From Argonema antarcticum A004/B2 (GTDB taxonomy: Bacteria > Cyanobacteriota > Cyanobacteriia > Cyanobacteriales > Aerosakkonemataceae), in contig NZ_JAIQZN010000003.1 in NCBI RefSeq assembly GCF_023333585.1, positions 68,954-132,953 of the forward strand: a DNA stretch of 64,000 nucleotides, in the 5' to 3' direction. Made by a program: the position numbers and the translations under genes. A model generated the notes under the pieces. The model was not told the origin of the DNA. It saw nothing but the letters and a program-made list of their open reading frames with translations, and did no database searches. Of this stretch, positions 2,392-49,115 are shown piece by piece (position 1 is the stretch's first letter; each line of letters begins with the position of its first letter).

Positions 2392-5340
2392 ATGAAAAGG
2401 GGCTTTATGTCAGCAGATATAGTCAGCTTGTATAAGTCAGATGTCAGTGAGCGCAAAGATATGGAACCAGCATTGAGGGAATCGGAAGCACGCTATCGCG
2501 CGATAGTTCAAGATCAGACAGAATTAATATGTCGGTTTTTAGCTGACGGAACGCTTACCTTCGTTAATGATGCCTACTGTCGCTATTTTAACAAAAAGCG
2601 GGACGAGTTAATTGGGCATACTTTTATACAGTTGATTCCAGATGACGATCGAGAAAAAATGGAAAAGCACATTGCTTCGCTTAGCCTGGAAAATCCTGTC
2701 GGCACGATCGAACACCGTGCGATCGTATCCAGTGGAGAGATTCGCTGGCAACAGTGGCTCGATCGGGCCATATTTGACGATCGAGCTTGCTTAATCGAGT
2801 TCCAATCTGTAGGGCGGGACATCACCGAATCCAAACGAATGGAATTAGCATTAAGAGAAAGTGAAGAACGCTATCGCGCTGTATTTACGCAAACTTACGA
2901 CGGTATTTATTTGTGTGATATTAATACCAAACGTATTCTTGAAGTTAATCCCGCACTTTGTCAATTGCTTGATTACACAGAAGCAGAAATTATGGAACTG
3001 ACACTTTACGATCTAGTCGCCACCAATAGGGAAAATATCGAGCGCAATATCCAGCGGCTGTTGGTAGAAAAACACTTGTTAATTGGTGAATCGCATCACC
3101 GTCGTAAGGATGGTTCCTCGATCGATGTAGAAGTTAGCCTTAACCTGATTTCCTACGGAAGAAAAGAAGCTGTATGTGCTGTTATTCGCGACATTACTGA
3201 GCGGAAGCGGGCACAAGATGCTCTCCGGGAGAGCGAAGCGCGACTGCAAGCAATCCTAGATGGCTGTCCGTCTGCCATTTATCTTAAGGACTTGGAAGGA
3301 CGACTCATTACGATCAATCACAGCAGCGAAAAGACAATTAAGCGAAGTAAAGAAAAGATAATTGGCAAGACAGTCTACGACCTCTTTCCACAGGAGATAG
3401 CAGAGCAATTTTACGCAAACGATCGACAAGTATTGTCAACTGGTATTTCCAAAGAATTCGAGGAATTTATTCCACAAGATGACGGTTTGCACACCGTGAT
3501 TGCCAATAAATTTCTGATTTATAACTCGGCTGGAAACCCCTACGCTATTTGCGGGATATCCACTGACATCAGCGATCGCAAGAGATCGGAAGAGGCATTA
3601 CGGCAAAGCGAAGCGATGAATTCCGCTCTCCTTAATGCGATACCAGATTTGATGATAAGAATGACCAAGAATGGAACTTACCTTGATTTTAGACCAGCAA
3701 AAAATTTCAAAGTTGTGATGCCTAGCTGGGATATAATCGGCAAAAATTTATTCGATATTCTGCCAGCAAACATAGCTGAGCAAAGAATGTATTACGTAGA
3801 CCAAGCACTCTCTACTGGCGAGACACAAATTTATGAATATCAGATGCCTTCTGACAACAGCACTATCTCTTATCAAGAAGCTCGCATCGTAGTCAGTGGA
3901 GAAGATGAAGTGTTAGTCATAGTCAGGGATATTAGCGATCGCAAACAAAATGAAGAAATCATCCGCTATCAAGCTTTTTATGACCAACTGAGCGGTTTGC
4001 CTAATCGAATATTATTTGAAGAACGGCTATCTATCTCATTACATCAGACACATCGAAACCTTGATATGGATATGGTGGCTGTGATGTTTCTGGATTTAGA
4101 CCGCTTCAAGACAATCAACGATACATTAGGCCACGCTATGGGCGATCGCTTATTACAAAGCGTTGGACAAAGACTGACAGGATGTTTGCGCGAAGGAGAC
4201 ACAGTTGCCCGTTGGGGAGGCGATGAATTCATCCTACTACTGCCCAACATCTCCTGTACAGAGGATGCCGCTCATCTGGCACAAAGGATTCTAGATGCCT
4301 TTCAGCGGCCTTTTAATCTAGAGGGGCACCGCCTTCATATCACCATCAGCATTGGGATTGCCTTCTCTCCCTGTGACGGCAAACAGGCAGAAACACTTTT
4401 AAGAAACGCAGATGGAGCCTTATATCTTGCTAAAGAACAAGGCCGAAATAACTATCAGTTTTATAATTCTACTCTCAATTCTCAAGCTTCTGAATTATTG
4501 GGACTGGAAAACGATCTGTACTATGCCGTAAAGCGGGGTGAATTTGTCGTCCACTACCAACCGCAGGTGAATACAACCACTGGCGAAATCATTGGGATGG
4601 AAGCTTTAGTGCGTTGGCAGCATCCTCAGTTCGGGTTAGTTTCTCCCGCAAAATTTATTTCGTTAGCTGAGGAAACCGGACTGATTGTACCTATCGGTGA
4701 ATGGGTGCTAAAAACTGCTTGTGCCCAATGTAAAGCTTGGCAGAATACAGGATTAGCAGGACTAATCGTCGCGGTTAACCTTTCGGCGAGACAGTTTCAG
4801 CAACGGAATTTGTTGGAAATAGTGGCGCATACTTTGCAAGAGACAGGGCTAGATCCCCAATGTTTGGAATTGGAAATTACGGAAAGCATTGCCATGCAGA
4901 ATGCGGAAAATACTCGTTCAATTATGAACCAATTGCATCAAATGGGAGTGCGCCTGTCCATAGATGATTTTGGCACAGGATATTCTTCATTAGGTTATCT
5001 GAAAAAATTCCCAATAGATACGCTGAAAATTGACAAATCTTTCATTAACGATCTGAATACTAACTCTAAGGATGCAGGGATCGTAAATGCCATTATGATT
5101 TTAGCAAAGGGACTCAACATTAAAGTGATTGCCGAAGGGGTGGAAACAGAAGCACAAAAAAAATGCCTCCAAAGTCTCCAATGTCAAGAAATGCAGGGTT
5201 ATTTGTTCAGCCGTCCCTTAGCAGCTGAGGATGCCACTAGACTGATGTGCAAATGTGGTTGTCTCAGAATGTTTAACTCATATACAGGTGTAATTATTTG
5301 CACCTGCGATTCTGGCTTCAACTTTCTAGAAACGGCTTAG
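2392..5340 (+). CDS. Multi-PAS GGDEF-EAL c-di-GMP protein, 982 aa
   Basis: Cytoplasmic-looking c-di-GMP synthase/phosphodiesterase with no membrane segments. Four PAS/PAC units each begin with an AL-R-(E/Q)SEA-type linker (near residues 28, 152, 276, 399), followed by GGDEF (RWGGDEF, residues 607-613) and EAL (MEALVRW, EAL at 737-739). Both signatures are intact. The N-terminus (DVSERKDMEPALRESEA) looks like the tail of another PAC module, so an upstream sensor part may have been lost. The last ~30 residues are unlike other EAL tails and Cys-rich (CKCGC, CTC). The stop overlaps the 3' end of convergent cobN by 23 bases. GGDEF-EAL is closely related to that of the first gene. Confidence 0.93.
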   Translation: MKRGFMSADIVSLYKSDVSERKDMEPALRESEARYRAIVQDQTELICRFLADGTLTFVNDAYCRYFNKKRDELIGHTFIQLIPDDDREKMEKHIASLSLENPVGTIEHRAIVSSGEIRWQQWLDRAIFDDRACLIEFQSVGRDITESKRMELALRESEERYRAVFTQTYDGIYLCDINTKRILEVNPALCQLLDYTEAEIMELTLYDLVATNRENIERNIQRLLVEKHLLIGESHHRRKDGSSIDVEVSLNLISYGRKEAVCAVIRDITERKRAQDALRESEARLQAILDGCPSAIYLKDLEGRLITINHSSEKTIKRSKEKIIGKTVYDLFPQEIAEQFYANDRQVLSTGISKEFEEFIPQDDGLHTVIANKFLIYNSAGNPYAICGISTDISDRKRSEEALRQSEAMNSALLNAIPDLMIRMTKNGTYLDFRPAKNFKVVMPSWDIIGKNLFDILPANIAEQRMYYVDQALSTGETQIYEYQMPSDNSTISYQEARIVVSGEDEVLVIVRDISDRKQNEEIIRYQAFYDQLSGLPNRILFEERLSISLHQTHRNLDMDMVAVMFLDLDRFKTINDTLGHAMGDRLLQSVGQRLTGCLREGDTVARWGGDEFILLLPNISCTEDAAHLAQRILDAFQRPFNLEGHRLHITISIGIAFSPCDGKQAETLLRNADGALYLAKEQGRNNYQFYNSTLNSQASELLGLENDLYYAVKRGEFVVHYQPQVNTTTGEIIGMEALVRWQHPQFGLVSPAKFISLAEETGLIVPIGEWVLKTACAQCKAWQNTGLAGLIVAVNLSARQFQQRNLLEIVAHTLQETGLDPQCLELEITESIAMQNAENTRSIMNQLHQMGVRLSIDDFGTGYSSLGYLKKFPIDTLKIDKSFINDLNTNSKDAGIVNAIMILAKGLNIKVIAEGVETEAQKKCLQSLQCQEMQGYLFSRPLAAEDATRLMCKCGCLRMFNSYTGVIICTCDSGFNFLETA

Positions 5341-8300
5341 TTTCGATCGCAGCTTCGGCTTGGTGAACCAGCGATCGCAATTTCTCCACCATAGGATGCT
5401 CAACTCCTTGCCACAAACCGCGCTGATGCGCTTCTAACAACCTTTCCGCCATATCTCGCATGGCCCAAGGATTTTTTTCTTGGATAAATGCCTGCACGGA
5501 TGGCTCAAACAGATACGCCTCTGCCACTCCCCGATACATAAAATCTTCCACACAGTTAGCCGTGGCATCGTAAGCAAATAAATAATCCACCGTCGCCGCC
5601 ATTTCAAACGCACCTTTGTAACCGTGACGCATCACTCCAGCGATCCATTTGGGATTCACTACACGAGAACGGTATACCCGTGCAATTTCCGATCGCAGTT
5701 GTCTCACTTTCGGATTTTCTGGCATAGAATTATCGCCAAAATAAGTTTGGGGATTTTTTCCAGTTAAGGCACGAACTGCTGCTGTCAAACCCCCTTGAAA
5801 TTGATAATAATCATCAGAATCCAGCAAATCGTGTTCGCGGTTGTCTTGATTGTGCAAGACAATTTGCATCTGTTGTAAGCGCTGCTCAAATGCTTCGGGT
5901 GCTGCTTGTCCTTCCTTTTTCGCACTATAAGCGTAACTGCTCCAATTGATATAAGCACGCGCTAAATCTCGCTCATCCTTCCAGTTTTGGGCTTCAATTA
6001 CACCTTGAATACCAGCACCGTAGGCACCGGGTTTAGAGCCAAAAATGCGGTAGCTCGATCGCACTTCTGCCTGTTCCTTACTCAACCCGGCTGAAAGCCA
6101 AAATTGCGTTTCTTGCTTTACTTGCGCCGCCAAAGGGTTTTGTTCTGGCGGTTCATTTAATGCCGCCACAGCTGAAGAGGCCCGATCGAATAAATCGATC
6201 AAATTAGGAAAAGCATCGCGGAAAAAACCCGAAATTCGCAGCGTCACATCCACACGCGGGCGTCCCAAAACCGAAACTGGTAAAATCTCAAAATCCACCA
6301 CCCGTCGCGAAGGGCCATCCCACACGGGTCGCACGCCCAGCAACGCCAACGCCTGCGCCAAATCATCCCCGCCAGTTCGCATTGTGGAAGTTCCCCATAC
6401 CGATAAGCCGAGTGTTTTTGGATACTCGCCATTCTCTTGGGTATATAGCTCTATCAATGTTTCAGCCGCTTTACGACCGACATCCCAGGCAGTCTCAGTA
6501 GGGATATTGCGTATATCTACTGAGTAAAAATTGCGGCCTGTAGGCAATACCTCCGGGCGTCCCCGCGTCGGAGCCCCAGATGGGCCACTGGGTACAAAGC
6601 GACCATCCAAACCTCGCAACAGTTGGGTAATTTCTTGTTGAGTTTGTTGGAGTGCAGGCAACAAATGAATGCGTATCCAATCTAACTCCAGTTTTGTCAT
6701 TTGTCCGTTGTCAGTTGTCAGTTGTGTGTTAACATTTGCGATCAGTTGCTCTACTAATTCAGCTGCGTATTCTTCCAATACTTCAACTGCATCACCAACC
6801 GTGCGACAATCTTTACCATTGACAAACGAAGAATGTACGGGTGAAGCATTTGTGTAGATCATCTTTGAGCGATCATCTAAATTTTTCGACACAAATGCTT
6901 CGCCCCTACTAACTAATGACAAATCTGCCGTTAAAGGATCGAAATCCAAACCCCAATCTTTAGCAATAGCACGAGTTAAACCAAGACGATTCGTACCCGG
7001 ATGACGGGCTATAGCGACAATCAAATCCCTTAATTGTCGCCCCTGCGGACACTGCCCAAAAATATGCAATCCATCGCGAATTTGAGCTTCTTTCAATTCG
7101 CACAAATAACCATCAATTGAATTCAAAACAGACAAATCCAAATTGCCAACATAAGATTCTCTATTTTGACTTTTGATTTTTGATTTTTGACTTACTTCTA
7201 AATCTTGATTTAGATTTTCTTGCAATATCAATTTAGCGATGCGATCGCCGATCATCGACAATCGCGACGGATCTAAACTTTGAGCATCATAATATTCATC
7301 AATTAAACCCTCCAATTGTTGCAAAGGGCCATAAAGTTCAGCCCTTGTCATCGGTGGAGTCAGGTGATCGATAATAACTGCTTGAGCGCGACGTTTAGCT
7401 TGAGAACCTTCACCAGGATCGTTAACAATAAAAGGATAAAAATGTGGCATTGCGCCTAATGCAACTTCTGGATAACAATTGCTGGATAACGCCACACTTT
7501 TACCAGGTAACCATTCCAAATTACCGTGCTTACCCACGTGAACGATCGCATCAGTATTAAAATGTTGCCGCACCCAATAATAAAAAGCCAAATAAGCATG
7601 AGTAGGTTCTAAATCAGGAGCATGATAATTTAAAGACGGGTCAAGATCGTAACCACGACTCGGCTGAATACCCACAAAAATATTACCCAATTGAATACCT
7701 GAAATGGGCAGAGGGTCAGAGGAGAAGGATTCTTCATTTCTCCATTGCACAAGAGTTCCCCACCGATCGCATATCCCTTTTTGAACCTCTGATGGCAAAG
7801 TGGCAAAATACTCTTTATATTGCTCTAAAGATAGATGCTGCCTGCGCGATCGCAATTCGCGCCCTTCTGGATCGTTCGTCACCCCAGCAGTTAAAATATC
7901 AATCAATTCATCACCAGTTTCAGGTATATTTTCAACCTGATAACCCGCTTGTTGCAAAGCCTTAAGAATTTCCACACAACTAGCTGGAGTATCCAAACCA
8001 ACGCCATTAGCAAGACGCCCATCGCGGTTAGGATAATTAGCTAAAATTAGAGCAATTCGACGATCGGCAACAGGCGTTTGACGCAGATGCACCCAGCTTA
8101 AAGCTAAATCGGCAACAAAAGCAATCCGGTCTAATTTAGGTTCGTATCCCACCACATCTGTTTGTAGTTCAGAATGTCGAGATTGCACCGCTTTAAAAGA
8201 AACTGCCCTACTAATAATTCGCCCATCAACCTCCGGTAATGCCACATTCATCGCCATATCTCGCGGCGAAAGTCCTTTGAAGCCAGATTCCCAATCTTCG

Positions 8301-9253
8301 ACAGTACCGCCGCTGAGAATTACCTGCAATACAGGCACATCTAAAGTGCTGAGTACTGAGTGCTGAGTGCTGAGTAAGGAGTCAGTTTCATTGGAAAAAG
8401 TAGTTTTGGCGATTGAAAAGCTGGTAGTGTTGAGTAAAACTTGTACAGGTTCTGCATCTTTGGGTTGGAAATATTCTAATAGATCTGCTTGTACATCAGG
8501 ATCTCGCAAAGAAGAGACAAATATCGGCACTGGGTGTAATTTGCGATCGGCTAAAGCTTGACAAATCGCATCAATTACAGTTGTATTTCCAGCCAAGTAA
8601 TGAGCGCGATAAAATAAAATTCCAACTTTAGGGATATCTAATTGGCAAAAATCTTCCACAGTCCCTATTTTCTTTTGACTTTTGACTTTTCTAGTCTCGC
8701 CTTGCCAGGGATAAAATCCCACACGGGGAACTTCTTGTGGCGGTGCTGGATTATAAATTTGCCCCAAACACACATCGGCCACAAATTTGAGGGCGTTAAG
8801 AAAATTTTCTACGCCGCCTTCGGTGAAGTAGCGCCACAGCTGATTAACGACTGTCAGCGAAACATTTGAGTGACTGATTAAATCTGGATCTGGGCTAGAG
8901 TCTCCTGGTATGACAATCATAGCTCCCTGGGATTTTTGCACAGTCTCCCGCGCCACTTCCAACCCATAAGACCAGTAGGAACGCCCTCCCAGCAACCGTA
9001 TAATGATTACCTGCGCCTGAGACAGCACCTGTTCTGCGTAAGTATCAATACTTAGCTGTTGTTGTAATTGCAAGAGATTGACAACCCTAATGTTCGGGAA
9101 TCCGTCTGGTAGTTTACCAACTGCCGCCCCTAGCGTTTGGATGTCTGTATCGGCAGCAGTCAGAAAAACGATCGGAGCGGGTGTCTGCTCCACAAAAATT
9201 ACACCTTCTTCCTGAAAATTCCATCCTCCGGGGGTAGCAGCTAAGCGATGCAC
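5318..9253 (-). CDS. cobN: Cobaltochelatase subunit CobN
   Basis: Large subunit (1311 aa) of the ATP-dependent cobaltochelatase that inserts cobalt into the corrin ring for B12, of the CobN/magnesium chelatase H family. The cyanobacterial-type N-terminus is present (GTG start; MHRLAATPGGW, then VEQTPAPIVFLTAADTDIQT), with the VHVGKHGNLEWLPGK segment and a complete C-terminal part. ChlH is similar, but the N-terminus fits CobN better. Four low-complexity insertions lie near residues 186-199, 288-304, 682-700 and 838-855. Their DNA consists of the short repeats found in nearby spacers, yet the frame stays open. No partner chelatase subunit is adjacent. The 174-bp upstream spacer shows no recognisable cobalamin riboswitch. 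Confidence 0.93.
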   Translation of the reverse strand: MHRLAATPGGWNFQEEGVIFVEQTPAPIVFLTAADTDIQTLGAAVGKLPDGFPNIRVVNLLQLQQQLSIDTYAEQVLSQAQVIIIRLLGGRSYWSYGLEVARETVQKSQGAMIVIPGDSSPDPDLISHSNVSLTVVNQLWRYFTEGGVENFLNALKFVADVCLGQIYNPAPPQEVPRVGFYPWQGETRKVKSQKKIGTVEDFCQLDIPKVGILFYRAHYLAGNTTVIDAICQALADRKLHPVPIFVSSLRDPDVQADLLEYFQPKDAEPVQVLLNTTSFSIAKTTFSNETDSLLSTQHSVLSTLDVPVLQVILSGGTVEDWESGFKGLSPRDMAMNVALPEVDGRIISRAVSFKAVQSRHSELQTDVVGYEPKLDRIAFVADLALSWVHLRQTPVADRRIALILANYPNRDGRLANGVGLDTPASCVEILKALQQAGYQVENIPETGDELIDILTAGVTNDPEGRELRSRRQHLSLEQYKEYFATLPSEVQKGICDRWGTLVQWRNEESFSSDPLPISGIQLGNIFVGIQPSRGYDLDPSLNYHAPDLEPTHAYLAFYYWVRQHFNTDAIVHVGKHGNLEWLPGKSVALSSNCYPEVALGAMPHFYPFIVNDPGEGSQAKRRAQAVIIDHLTPPMTRAELYGPLQQLEGLIDEYYDAQSLDPSRLSMIGDRIAKLILQENLNQDLEVSQKSKIKSQNRESYVGNLDLSVLNSIDGYLCELKEAQIRDGLHIFGQCPQGRQLRDLIVAIARHPGTNRLGLTRAIAKDWGLDFDPLTADLSLVSRGEAFVSKNLDDRSKMIYTNASPVHSSFVNGKDCRTVGDAVEVLEEYAAELVEQLIANVNTQLTTDNGQMTKLELDWIRIHLLPALQQTQQEITQLLRGLDGRFVPSGPSGAPTRGRPEVLPTGRNFYSVDIRNIPTETAWDVGRKAAETLIELYTQENGEYPKTLGLSVWGTSTMRTGGDDLAQALALLGVRPVWDGPSRRVVDFEILPVSVLGRPRVDVTLRISGFFRDAFPNLIDLFDRASSAVAALNEPPEQNPLAAQVKQETQFWLSAGLSKEQAEVRSSYRIFGSKPGAYGAGIQGVIEAQNWKDERDLARAYINWSSYAYSAKKEGQAAPEAFEQRLQQMQIVLHNQDNREHDLLDSDDYYQFQGGLTAAVRALTGKNPQTYFGDNSMPENPKVRQLRSEIARVYRSRVVNPKWIAGVMRHGYKGAFEMAATVDYLFAYDATANCVEDFMYRGVAEAYLFEPSVQAFIQEKNPWAMRDMAERLLEAHQRGLWQGVEHPMVEKLRSLVHQAEAAIETKPFLES

Positions 9254-9427: not shown

Positions 9428-11872
9428 ATGGTGAGTTACCAAAAATCAATTTTAGGCCGGTCTTTGCCCCTTGCAACTTTTGAGCGGCTGCGAAAGCTGT
9501 TGCAACAGATGGCTGAGAGGGTTGGGGAAGATACCTCCCTCAATTCTGACCAAACTGTCGGAAGAGAAGTAAATGATATTACCCTATTTTTGACCGAAGA
9601 GGTAGTGTCTTCTGTGGAAATTGTGCAGAAAACACAGTCAGAAAGGTTCGCGGTGTTAGTTTCGAGGCGGTTTAGTGCCCTGCTGTTGGGGACAGCCTTG
9701 CAGTCAGATCTTCTCACACAAAACTCTCTAAAGGTGGAGTTGACCTTCGAGCCTGGAGCGATCGCCGCCTTTTTGGCCCAACTTAGCAATTTACTCAAAA
9801 ACAATCCTTTTGCTTGCAAAACTCTGCAAACAGCCAGCGAAATCCTCCAACCCAACGACCCGACCCTTCAAAGTGAATTCACCCTCTCTTTGCTGGAAAT
9901 GCTTTCGCCCGAAGAGACACCAGAAACGTGCTACCCTTATGTTTCTGTCTGTCAACCCGTGCATGAGGCACTAGGCCAACAAATCGAACAAGAGCAACTC
10001 CTGAATCGGGTGACAACCCAAATCCGCCAGAGTCTAGAGTTACCCGTCATTCTGAAAACTGCGGTTGAGCAGGTTAGATCTTTCTTGCAAGCCGATCGCT
10101 TAGTAATATATCAATTTAACTTTAATTCGACAGATAAGGAGCAAAACGCCTGTGTAATACCTCCTTTTGTCCAAGAACTCGACGCTTATGAAGTAAACGG
10201 AAACGCAGATTCAAATTTTCCTCTCCCCCTTTTACCCCCGGCTCTCCCACTCCCCCACTCTCCCGCTCCTGTACCCTCTGCCTTTCTATATCCCTCCTCA
10301 TGCTCCGGTCGTATTACTTACGAAGCTAGATCTGACGATACCATACCCTCAGTACTGAATTTGGCTGAGGAGGCGCACTGCTTCACGTATGTACCCGACT
10401 GTCGGGAGAAATATCGCAAAGGCTTAGCCATAGCGGTGGAAGATGTGGAAACTGCCTACGTCTTTTCTCCCTGCTTGTTGAATTTAATGCGACGCACTCA
10501 GGTTCGAGCGAAGTTGGTTGTGCCAATTGCGATCCAAGATCGGTTGTGGGGACTGGTGATTGCCCATCAATGCTTCGAGCCGCGCCAATGGCAGGATAAT
10601 GAAAAAAACTTTCTGCGGGATATTGCAGAACACTTAGCTTTAGCAATTTACCAAGCCGAACTTTACGCCGAAGTGCAACAGCAAAAACAAACGCTAGAAC
10701 AACGGGTGATCGATCGCACGCAAGAACTCCACGATGCCATGCTAGCAGCACAATCAGCGAACCGAGCCAAGGGTGAATTTCTCTCCACCATGAGCCACGA
10801 ATTGCGGACTCCCCTCACCTGCGTCATCGGGTTGTCTGCTACTCTGTTGCGTTGGTCATTTGGCCAGCTGAGTCAGAAGCAGCGCGATTACCTGCAAACC
10901 ATCCACGACAATGGAGAACACCTATTAGAGTTAATCAACGATATTCTAGATCTGTCTCAGCTGGAAGCGGGTAAAACCCTTTTAAATTTCAGTGACTTTT
11001 CCTTGTCTCAACTTGCTCAACAAAGCTTACAAATTGTGAAAGAAAAAGCCCAACAACGCGGGGTTGAACTAGCAATAAATTTACGAATTAACCCCGTTCG
11101 CGATCGCTTTTTGGCTGATGATAAACGAGTTAGGCAGATTCTTTTTAATCTCTTGAGCAATGGCATCAAATTTACCCCTTCTGGCGGACGAGTTATTCTG
11201 CGAGTTTGGTTAGAAAACAACACGGCTGTGTTTCAGGTAGAAGACACTGGTATCGGCATTTCCGAAGCTCAGATGCCTCTACTTTTTCAGAAATTTCAAC
11301 AGTTGGATACTTCTTACCACCGCCAATATGAAGGAACTGGGCTGGGTTTAGCTTTAACAAAACAACTGGTAGAATTGCATCAAGGCAGGATCGAAGTCGA
11401 ATCTACAGTCGATGTGGGGTCGATTTTTACCGTGTGGTTGCCTCTACCGCCGTCAGCACCTGTGGTCAGCGACGCGCAAATACCGGGAAGTAGCGATATT
11501 CCTGAAGGGCGCATTGTTTTGATTGAAAACGATGAAGAAACAGCTACCCTGATCTGCGATATACTTACAGCCGCAGGTTATCAGATGGTGTGGATTGTTG
11601 AAGGCAGTACGGCTCTTATGCAAATTGAGATCTTGCAACCCTTAGTTGCGATCGTGGAGATTAATTTATCAGGAATGAATGGTTATGAAGTCATTCGCGA
11701 ACTGCGTAATTCCCCAGCAGTGCCAAACCTCAAAATTATCGCTATAGCAGCTACGGAAACGCCTGAAAATAATTTGTACGGTTTGGCAGCAGAACCAGAT
11801 GATTATCTGCCAAAACCCTTTCGCCCAGAGCAATTATTGCATAAAATTGCTAACTTCGTCATCGCTCAGTAG
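9428..11872 (+). CDS. GAF hybrid histidine kinase with altered receiver
   Basis: Soluble 814-aa sensor kinase. Residues 1-180 are an unrecognised N-terminal domain. A phytochrome-style GAF domain follows (about 190-415), interrupted near 262-291 by a Pro/Leu/Ser-rich stretch encoded by a CTCCCCCA-type repeat. A coiled linker leads to HisKA with FLSTMSHELRTPL (His457), a HATPase (VEDTGIGI, GTGLGLALTKQL) and a C-terminal receiver (about 695-814). In the receiver the phospho-acceptor Asp is replaced by Glu744 (AIVEINLSGMNG) and the acidic pair reads IEN, while the Lys (LPKPF) is kept. The kinase core looks active; the receiver probably cannot be phosphorylated normally. The ligand or chromophore is unknown. 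Confidence 0.92.
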   Translation: MVSYQKSILGRSLPLATFERLRKLLQQMAERVGEDTSLNSDQTVGREVNDITLFLTEEVVSSVEIVQKTQSERFAVLVSRRFSALLLGTALQSDLLTQNSLKVELTFEPGAIAAFLAQLSNLLKNNPFACKTLQTASEILQPNDPTLQSEFTLSLLEMLSPEETPETCYPYVSVCQPVHEALGQQIEQEQLLNRVTTQIRQSLELPVILKTAVEQVRSFLQADRLVIYQFNFNSTDKEQNACVIPPFVQELDAYEVNGNADSNFPLPLLPPALPLPHSPAPVPSAFLYPSSCSGRITYEARSDDTIPSVLNLAEEAHCFTYVPDCREKYRKGLAIAVEDVETAYVFSPCLLNLMRRTQVRAKLVVPIAIQDRLWGLVIAHQCFEPRQWQDNEKNFLRDIAEHLALAIYQAELYAEVQQQKQTLEQRVIDRTQELHDAMLAAQSANRAKGEFLSTMSHELRTPLTCVIGLSATLLRWSFGQLSQKQRDYLQTIHDNGEHLLELINDILDLSQLEAGKTLLNFSDFSLSQLAQQSLQIVKEKAQQRGVELAINLRINPVRDRFLADDKRVRQILFNLLSNGIKFTPSGGRVILRVWLENNTAVFQVEDTGIGISEAQMPLLFQKFQQLDTSYHRQYEGTGLGLALTKQLVELHQGRIEVESTVDVGSIFTVWLPLPPSAPVVSDAQIPGSSDIPEGRIVLIENDEETATLICDILTAAGYQMVWIVEGSTALMQIEILQPLVAIVEINLSGMNGYEVIRELRNSPAVPNLKIIAIAATETPENNLYGLAAEPDDYLPKPFRPEQLLHKIANFVIAQ

Positions 11873-14188: not shown

Positions 14189-14920
14189 ATGTTGCCCAAT
14201 AAAGAAGGACAAAAAGTTCCCAACGTCACCTTCCGTACTCGTCAGAAAGGCCAGTGGGTAGATGTGACTACAGATGAGCTATTTGCAGGTAAGACAGTAG
14301 CTGTCTTCTCCTTACCGGGTGCTTTTACGCCAACCTGTTCATCGACCCACGTCCCCGGCTACAACGAATTGGCGAAGGTCTTCAAAGAAAATGGCGTAGA
14401 CGATATTGTTTGTATTTCCGTCAATGATGCCTTTGTCATGGAGGAATGGGCAAAAGATCAAAAGGCAGATAATATCACATTCATTCCCGATGGTAACGGT
14501 CAATTCACGGAAGGAATGGGATTGCTAGTTGATAAGTCAGACCTGGGCTTTGGTAAGCGGTCGTGGCGCTATTCTATGCTGGTCAAAGACGGCACGGTTG
14601 AGAAAATGTTTATTGAGCCAGAAGAACCTGGCGATCCCTTCAAAGTGTCTGATGCCCAGACAATGCTTAGCTATATTAACCCGGAAGCAGTTAAGCCAAA
14701 ATTAGTTTCTTTGTTTGCCAAAGTCGGTTGTCCCTTCTGCGCCCGTGCCAAAGCTATGCTGAAGGATCATGGCTTAGATTACGAAGAAATTGTCTTGGGT
14801 AAGGATGTCACCACGCGGTCTTTACGCGCCGTCACAGGTGCAATCACAGTTCCCCAAGTATTTATTGATGGCAAATTAATTGGTGGTTCAGAAGCGCTAG
14901 CAGCCTACCTGGGTGCTTAG
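14189..14920 (+). CDS. Peroxiredoxin 5-glutaredoxin fusion
   Basis: A hybrid 243-aa peroxidase. Residues 1-160 are a Prx5-type peroxiredoxin with the peroxidatic Cys in [16 protein letters not shown]. Residues 175-243 are a glutaredoxin with a CPFC dithiol ([12 protein letters not shown]), TVPQVFIDG and GGSEAL. Such fusions reduce H2O2 and alkyl hydroperoxides using glutathione, with the glutaredoxin domain recycling the peroxiredoxin. An ATG at 14147 is in frame, but it sits inside the palindrome; the ATG at 14189 has AGGAG 8 bases upstream and matches the usual N-terminus ([15 protein letters not shown]). It is single-gene, with convergent neighbours downstream. Confidence 0.93.
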
Positions 14921-14973
14921 TACTGAGTACTGAGTGCTGAGGAAACCCGGTTTCTCCAAGAAACCGGGTTTCT
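14918..14973. terminator. REP palindrome between convergent genes
   Basis: A GAGTACTGAGTGCT-type short repeat runs from the prx-grx stop. It is followed by a perfect 14-bp-stem hairpin, GAAACCCGGTTTCT - CCA - complement, at 14942-14972. Related GAAACCCGG palindromes occur at 41572-41605 and 43734-43766. Its position between two converging genes suits a bidirectional terminator. Confidence 0.6.
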
Positions 14974-32152: not shown

Positions 32153-32479
32153 GTGTATTCGTCGCCATCCGGCTTATATCCCGCCGCCGAATCGAAGCGA
32201 TTATGGCGGGAGACTTACGCCGAAAGAGTTAAACCCCATCTGCAATCTCAAATTAATTAAACCCATTGGTAAAGTTGGCATTGCTCACCTCCTTTTCCTA
32301 CCTTGTTGTAGAGACGTTTTATGAAACGTCTCTACAGAGTTACAGCCTTTGGTAAGCTAACACGCATCTAATTCGGATATTTCTAATCCGGCAATCAAAC
32401 CTTCAATTCCTCTCCCACTCCCCCACTCCCCCACTCTCCCACTCCCGCTAAACATACAAATTAAATGCGTAGCAGCTTA
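32153..32479. repeat. Spacer with hairpin and CTCCCCCA repeats
   Basis: Holds a perfect 12-bp-stem hairpin at 32308-32335 (GTAGAGACGTTT - TATG - complement) and a CTCCCCCA-type tandem repeat at 32411-32448, the unit also seen inside the histidine kinase and GH3 genes. Nothing coding was recognised. Confidence 0.7.
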
Positions 32480-35585: not shown

Positions 35586-35742
35586 GGCAATTTTGGATTT
35601 TGGATTTTAGATTTTAGATTTTAGATTTTGGGGACAAGTGTGGCATAAGTAGTCGGTTGGGAGGAAGAGTCCGCCTTGTCCCTTTTAGCTTTTGACTTTT
35701 GACTTTTGACTTTTGACTTTTGACTTTTAAGTTTTGACTTGT
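35586..35742. repeat. Two heptamer tracts upstream of cbiD
   Basis: An ATTTTAG/ATTTTGG tract (35590-35630) and a TTTTGAC tract (35689-35740), separated by ~60 bp, lie between cbiD and the STAS gene on the opposite strand. TTTTGAC units also appear inside cobN and near 41445. Confidence 0.8.
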
Positions 35743-48873: not shown

Positions 48874-49027
48874 GTCAGTGGTCAGTGGTCAGTGGTCAGT
48901 GGTCAGTTGTCAGTTGTCAGTTGTCAGTTGTCAGTTGTCAGTTGTCAGTGGTCAGTTGTCAGTTGTCAGTGGTCAGTGGTCAGTGGTCAGTGGTCAGTTG
49001 TCAGTTGTCAGTTGTCAGTTGTCAGTT
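48874..49027. repeat. 22-unit GTCAGTG/GTCAGTT minisatellite
   Basis: Twenty-two uninterrupted 7-base units differ only in the last base. Unit order by last base: G4 T6 G1 T2 G4 T5. It lies between the TpsB-like gene and the hydrolase. The same unit is found in frame in cobN near 6698-6725. Confidence 0.97.
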
Positions 49028-49115
49028 GTATAGCTAGGGACTAGGGGAAGAAGTGTTTAGAATTAAGGGTTTGGTGGAATTGAGAATTTCCTAACCGACT
49101 TTCATCGGTTGCTAT

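What the first reader, a model, noticed from the sequence alone, without database searches (positions are those of the whole stretch)
11490..11872. Receiver domain with Glu instead of the phospho-acceptor Asp
In the hybrid kinase the receiver reads VAIVEINLSGMNG, so the normal Asp is Glu744, and the acidic pair is changed to EN while Lys is kept. A Glu there can mimic permanent phosphorylation, suggesting a locked receiver.
Basis: seen in the sequence. Interest (0 to 1): 0.55.

Follow-up and report, generated by a model that had tools for sequence, protein, structure and literature searches.

The report
Clock kinase CikA with Glu pseudo-receiver
The gene encodes the cyanobacterial clock kinase CikA, and the odd glutamate sits in its known kind of non-phosphorylatable 'pseudo-receiver' docking domain, so the substitution is real and conserved locally but fairly ordinary.

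Summary
In detail: in the 814-aa hybrid kinase (9428-11872, +) the phospho-acceptor is Glu744, the acidic pair is Glu700/Asn701, and Lys796 is kept. The protein is the orthologue of the circadian input kinase CikA. Its receiver's best PDB sequence match is the S. elongatus CikA pseudo-receiver; it is the reciprocal best hit of Thermosynechococcus CikA; it shares the divergent chlH neighbour; kaiABC lies on the same contig. CikA receivers are already known as 'pseudo-receivers' that lack the Asp. Across 144 CikA receivers the position is D 77, N 32, S 12, A 10, E 8, G 2, T 2, H 1, with at least 24 D/non-D switches and 4 separate origins of Glu. What is conserved is the KaiB-binding strand (Cys710, Val/Ile721, Trp722, Leu736). 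Glu is shared by the genus and two neighbouring genera, so it is neither an error nor a recent mutation. Most likely this is a phosphorylation-independent KaiB-docking and kinase-restraining domain. A phosphomimetic lock is not excluded, but it is weakened by the missing Thr and by Lys being kept in only one of the four Glu origins.

The parts
9428..11872 (+). cikA, 814 aa: N-terminal region, GAF, HisKA, HATPase_c, pseudo-receiver
10040..10648 (+). GAF domain (residues 205-407), with Cys349 at the position of the bilin Cys of related GAF domains
10766..10972 (+). HisKA (residues 447-515), His457 invariant in 57 aligned full-length sequences
11117..11449 (+). HATPase_c (residues 564-674)
11495..11869 (+). 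pseudo-receiver (residues 690-814); AlphaFold2 model with receiver fold, mean pLDDT 81
11525..11530 (+). acidic-pair positions, Glu700-Asn701
11555..11557 (+). Cys710, equivalent of T. elongatus CikA Cys630, a KaiB contact
11588..11590 (+). Val721, equivalent of T. elongatus Ile641 in the middle of the KaiB-binding strand
11633..11635 (+). Leu736, equivalent of T. elongatus Leu654, a KaiB contact
11657..11659 (+). Glu744 (GAG) at the phospho-acceptor position
11747..11749 (+). Ala774 at the conserved Thr/Ser position
11813..11815 (+). Lys796, conserved Lys kept
5318..9253 (-). chlH (magnesium chelatase H subunit; name recalled, no family search run), divergent neighbour; arrangement also seen beside other cikA genes

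Best explanation
The protein is CikA, the kinase/phosphatase that links the KaiABC clock to its surroundings and to the output regulator RpaA. Its C-terminal receiver is a pseudo-receiver. It is not phosphorylated at the usual site. It works as a docking and restraint domain: its beta-2 strand binds fold-switched KaiB on KaiC at night, which turns CikA toward dephosphorylating RpaA, and when unbound the domain restrains the kinase. Glu744 is one of several tolerated replacements of an acceptor that CikA no longer needs. In this clade the D-to-E change keeps a negative charge next to Lys796, probably for fold and electrostatics. Shown here: orthology, the residue changes, their conservation and the conserved KaiB-contact residues. 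Taken from published work on other CikA proteins: KaiB binding, RpaA dephosphorylation, kinase restraint and quinone sensing. Inferred: that this orthologue behaves the same and that Glu744 itself carries no signal.
For: The best PDB sequence match of the domain is 2j48 (S. elongatus CikA PsR), with 5jyu (T. elongatus CikA PsR) third (identities of the proteins). The architecture is GAF-HisKA-HATPase-REC. Thermosynechococcus CikA (L106) hits this gene at 512 bits in its genome, runner-up 201. The chlH N-terminus lies upstream in the opposite direction in 25 of 78 cikA loci, among them three Thermosynechococcus loci. kaiA-kaiB-kaiC lies about 25 kb away on the same contig. KaiB-contact residues C630/I641/L654 (section 10 of PMC6378743) map to C710/V721/L736: Cys in 136 of 144, V or I in 143 of 144, Leu in 129 of 144. 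By weighted entropy C710 ranks 2nd of 121 positions, the acceptor 68th and the second acidic position 95th. PsR dN/dS against the two congeners is 0.13-0.18, so the domain is under constraint.
Against: 77 of 144 CikA receivers keep Asp and 25 of 144 keep every canonical active-site residue, so phosphorylation may matter in part of the family. Glu has been kept through synonymous divergence of about 1 or more, so it may be selected rather than merely tolerated. KaiB binding was not tested for this protein. No coordinates were available to measure a Glu744-Lys796 contact.
Confidence: 0.77

Rival explanations
1. Phosphomimetic lock: Glu744, paired with Lys796 and freed from the second acidic residue, holds the receiver in its phosphorylated-like form, so CikA in this clade is constitutively in one signalling state.
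For: Glu and Lys796 are both kept in 5 of 5 clade members and Asn701 in 5 of 5. PDB 2jb9, titled a constitutively active PhoB D10A/D53E double mutant, has the same pair of changes in kind. PMC12632262 section 18 calls Glu at the D position an attractive source of constitutive activity.
Against: Thr/Ser 774 is Ala in 4 of 5 clade members. The other three Glu origins carry E, H or N in place of Lys. The CikA proteins whose pseudo-receivers have been studied, S. elongatus and T. elongatus, have Ala at the site. Passages of PMC4395418 say D-to-E alone is often not enough, and that in ChxR replacing Glu did not abolish activity.
Confidence: 0.15
2. A phosphorylatable receiver that uses Glu744 or a nearby residue (for example Asp702) as an alternative acceptor.
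For: Asp702 follows the acidic pair and Lys796 is kept. PMC4395418 notes that Glu has been shown to be phosphorylatable.
Against: The second acidic residue (Mg ligand) is Asn and the Thr is Ala. Position 702 is variable in the family: D 0.32, H 0.28 by weight.
Confidence: 0.03
3. A sequencing error or a decaying domain.
For: The receiver domain is absent from several related CikA proteins, for example L010, L045, L049, L053.
Against: Glu occurs in four other genomes with two codons; the frame is intact; PsR dN/dS is 0.13-0.18 in the genus.
Confidence: 0.01

Closest known systems
CikA of Synechococcus elongatus PCC 7942 and Thermosynechococcus elongatus (pseudo-receiver structures 2j48, 5jyu, 5jyv)
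   Same: Kinase core, pseudo-receiver lacking the Asp, KaiB-contact residues (C, V/I, L), and for Thermosynechococcus the divergent chlH neighbour
   Different: Acceptor position is Glu here, Ala in both references; active-site Lys kept here but Leu in the Thermosynechococcus loci; the alpha2 and beta4-alpha4 regions are longer than in T. elongatus
Aspartate-less receivers (ALR) with Glu, such as ChxR
   Same: Glu at the D position with the second acidic residue lost, the commonest pattern described for ALRs (Glu 26%, second residue acidic in only 29%; PMC4395418 passages)
   Different: Here it is the C-terminal domain of a hybrid kinase, not a DNA-binding response regulator
Plant clock pseudo-response regulators (PRR)
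   Same: Clock protein with receiver-like domain in which D is typically Glu (PMC12632262 section 4)
   Different: Different architecture and no orthology; an analogy only

Membership tests
CikA (circadian input kinase) | N-terminal region, GAF, HisKA, HATPase and C-terminal receiver in one protein | tested here: met
   57-row full-length alignment
CikA (circadian input kinase) | Orthology: best match of Thermosynechococcus CikA in this genome, and conserved gene neighbour | tested here: met
   512 against 201 bits; chlH in 25 of 78 loci
CikA (circadian input kinase) | KaiB-contact residues of the pseudo-receiver | tested here: met
   C710, V721, L736
CikA (circadian input kinase) | Genome holds kaiA, kaiB and kaiC | tested here: met
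CikA (circadian input kinase) | KaiB binding, RpaA dephosphorylation, quinone response | not testable with these tools
   published for S. elongatus and T. elongatus
Pseudo-receiver / aspartate-less receiver | Receiver fold recognised as such, lacking the phospho-acceptor Asp | tested here: met
Canonical phosphorylatable receiver | Asp acceptor, acidic second residue and Thr/Ser | tested here: not met
   E744, N701, A774
Phosphomimetic-locked receiver | Glu at the acceptor with the Thr/Ser and Lys that would hold it | tested here: not met
   Lys796 present but position 774 is Ala
Phosphomimetic-locked receiver | Constitutive active-state behaviour | not testable with these tools
   needs biochemistry

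The most novel reading that the evidence does not exclude
CikA is a family in which one orthologous domain keeps switching between a full phosphorylatable receiver and a pseudo-receiver (25 of 144 fully canonical, 67 of 144 without Asp, at least 24 switches), while KaiB docking stays fixed. In this clade Glu744-Lys796 with Asn701 freezes the domain in its phosphorylated-like form, so the window lineage would have hard-wired a clock-input state that its Asp-bearing relatives still switch by phosphorylation.
Probability: 0.15. Interest if true: 0.5.

Novelty: new member of a known kind. Interest (0 to 1): 0.2.

Why it matters
It places an apparently odd receiver in a well-studied clock protein and shows that the acceptor position is one of the less conserved parts of that domain, while the KaiB-binding strand is nearly fixed. 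The set of natural D, N, S, A, E and canonical CikA receivers would let one test whether phosphorylation ever modulates CikA, using pairs of close relatives such as the window clade (Glu) and L035-L039 (Asp).

Tried and rejected
NCBIfam gave no equivalog: 133 families matched at E up to 0.001 (25 shown), and every one shown scores far below its cut-off; CikA was identified through PDB matches, best hits and synteny instead.

I first took residue 775 as the Thr/Ser position and corrected it to 774.

Whether loss of Asp goes with loss of Lys: 15 independent pairs on supported branches, Lys differed in too few to decide (median p 1). Raw counts from the 110-row set (Lys kept in 51 of 63 with D, 23 of 47 without D) are therefore not evidence by themselves.

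The fold search confirmed only a receiver fold; 5jyu ranks 15th by E-value, and ordinary receivers rank higher. In the VIA second look neither 2j48 nor 5jyu is among the 50 entries shown. The full-length model has pTM 0.43, so the placement of the PsR on the kinase is not usable.

Rows dropped: L135 (183 bits, a Bacteroidales record) and L136 (kaiA locus), 15 duplicates, and 9 proteins with no or short receiver; 6 further duplicates. The entropy and first tree use the 110- and 119-row sets; the final tally uses 144 of 153. Sampling limits: the genome-contig scan favours relatives of the window; of the 388 genomes sampled in the class, 311 had a match, and I read receivers from only part of them. 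The trees are quick ones with many open forks and some joined long branches; switch counts are minima on those trees.

Full report
What is there. The window carries an intact 814-codon gene at 9428-11872 (+). Pfam finds GAF (205-407), HisKA (447-515), HATPase_c (564-674) and Response_reg (696-807, E 8.4e-16). Glu744 occupies the phospho-acceptor position, Glu700-Asn701 the acidic pair, Ala774 the Thr/Ser position, and Lys796 the conserved Lys.

Which protein. The receiver's best PDB sequence match is 2j48, the pseudo-receiver of S. elongatus CikA (E 5.9e-17); 5jyu, that of T. elongatus CikA, is third (8.2e-15). Both have Ala where this protein has Glu. Searching the window's genome with a Thermosynechococcus CikA (L106) returns this gene at 512 bits, with the runner-up at 201. 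The divergent chlH-cikA arrangement recurs in 25 of 78 cikA loci searched, including three Thermosynechococcus records; not all 78 have enough upstream sequence to show it. KaiA, KaiB and KaiC are encoded together about 25 kb upstream of cikA on the same contig (KaiC by its recognisable sequence, no family search). I therefore call it CikA.

Is the Glu real and old? The two congeneric genomes found and two other genera of the family have Glu (5 of 5 with the window), coded GAG in three and GAA in two; the other five family members read have Asp. Synonymous divergence to the two sister genera is roughly 1 or more in the receiver by NG86 (some segments saturated), so this is neither an error nor a recent mutation. 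PsR dN/dS against the congeners is 0.13-0.18, lower than the kinase core in those pairs (0.24-0.28); against the two sister genera it is 0.14-0.17, above the kinase core (0.07-0.10).

How unusual is it? In the same genome, 69 of 70 other receivers read have Asp and 1 has Glu; the 70 are the 30 top-scoring matches plus 40 taken at about every third place down the list of 152. Within CikA, however, the position is labile. In 144 receivers from 153 distinct CikA-like proteins it is D 77, N 32, S 12, A 10, E 8, G 2, T 2, H 1. On a tree of the GAF-kinase region, with the receiver left out, D against non-D needs at least 24 changes (the ten label shuffles printed need 43-55) and Glu at least 4 origins; a smaller set of 119 gave 20 and 3. 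Only 25 of 144 keep all five canonical residues, most of them one clade of closely related Microcoleus-type records.

What is conserved instead? A review (PMC6378743, section 10 read) reports that T. elongatus CikA I641, L654 and C630 contact fold-switched KaiB through beta-2, and that C630R abolishes the complex. These map to V721, L736 and C710 here (alignment; residue numbering by my count). Cys is kept in 136 of 144, V or I in 143, Leu in 129, and Trp722 in 141. By weighted entropy in 110 receivers, C710 ranks 2 of 121 and W722 rank 4, against 68 for the acceptor, 95 for the second acidic residue and 100 for Thr/Ser. The domain is thus held by its docking surface, not by its phosphorylation site.

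Mechanism. From published work on S. elongatus and T. elongatus (section 10 of PMC6378743; passages of PMC13421787): the PsR restrains autophosphorylation, docks on KaiB in the KaiB-KaiC complex in competition with KaiA, promotes dephosphorylation of RpaA, and responds to oxidised quinones. By orthology and conserved contacts I infer the same here. Glu744 then most likely keeps charge beside Lys796 and carries no signal.

The lock hypothesis. For it: Lys796 and Asn701 are kept with Glu in all 5 clade members, and a PhoB D10A/D53E structure titled constitutively active has changes of the same kind. Against it: Ala at 774 in 4 of 5; the other three Glu origins have E, H or N in place of Lys; and PMC4395418 (passages) reports that D-to-E is the commonest ALR substitution (26%), is often insufficient alone, and that in ChxR the Glu could be replaced without loss of activity. 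I give it 0.15.

Structure. The AlphaFold2 model of the PsR (mean pLDDT 81) shows a receiver fold with no confident alpha-4. No coordinates were available, so no distances are claimed.

Known or new? That CikA has an Asp-less pseudo-receiver is long known. I did not find a published tally of the acceptor residue across CikA orthologues in searches of the held open-access library; a likely source, Baca et al. 2010, is not held (title seen in a reference list), so I make no claim of priority.

Noticed in passing
L206 (G000:C222:39538-39813): A second receiver of the same genome has Glu at the acceptor (VISEVMMPGMDG) with its DDD motif intact, in a short open frame of 96 aa.
   Followed up: no
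L062-L066, L002, L014, L015, L025, L028, L050 and others: 25 of 144 CikA receivers keep all canonical active-site residues, so some CikA proteins may have phosphorylatable receivers.
   Followed up: partly
L010, L045, L049, L053, L088, L107, L110: CikA homologues whose open frame ends before the receiver; the domain appears to be lost in several lineages.
   Followed up: partly
window 6695-6724, 7163-7189, 8342-8371 and 10235-10279: In-frame insert-like stretches in chlH and in the cikA GAF domain match short repeats found elsewhere in the window (for example near 48900-49030, 35690-35728, 14913-14941, 32410-32445), as if repeats had entered coding sequence.
   Followed up: partly
window 6536-6580: chlH encodes a stretch SGAPTRGRPEVLPTG that looks like a translated repeat element; no second copy in the window.
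   Followed up: no
window residue Cys349 of cikA (10472-10474): Cys at the position of the bilin-binding Cys of related GAF domains is kept in 119 of the 136 sequences with a residue there, although the review read says S. elongatus CikA lacks it; the next residue is Leu, not His.
   Followed up: no
G000:C192:53949-54611, C202:30944-31189, C222:7276-7515: Four more KaiB-domain hits outside kaiABC, one in a 398-aa frame that could be SasA and two side by side on C192.
   Followed up: no
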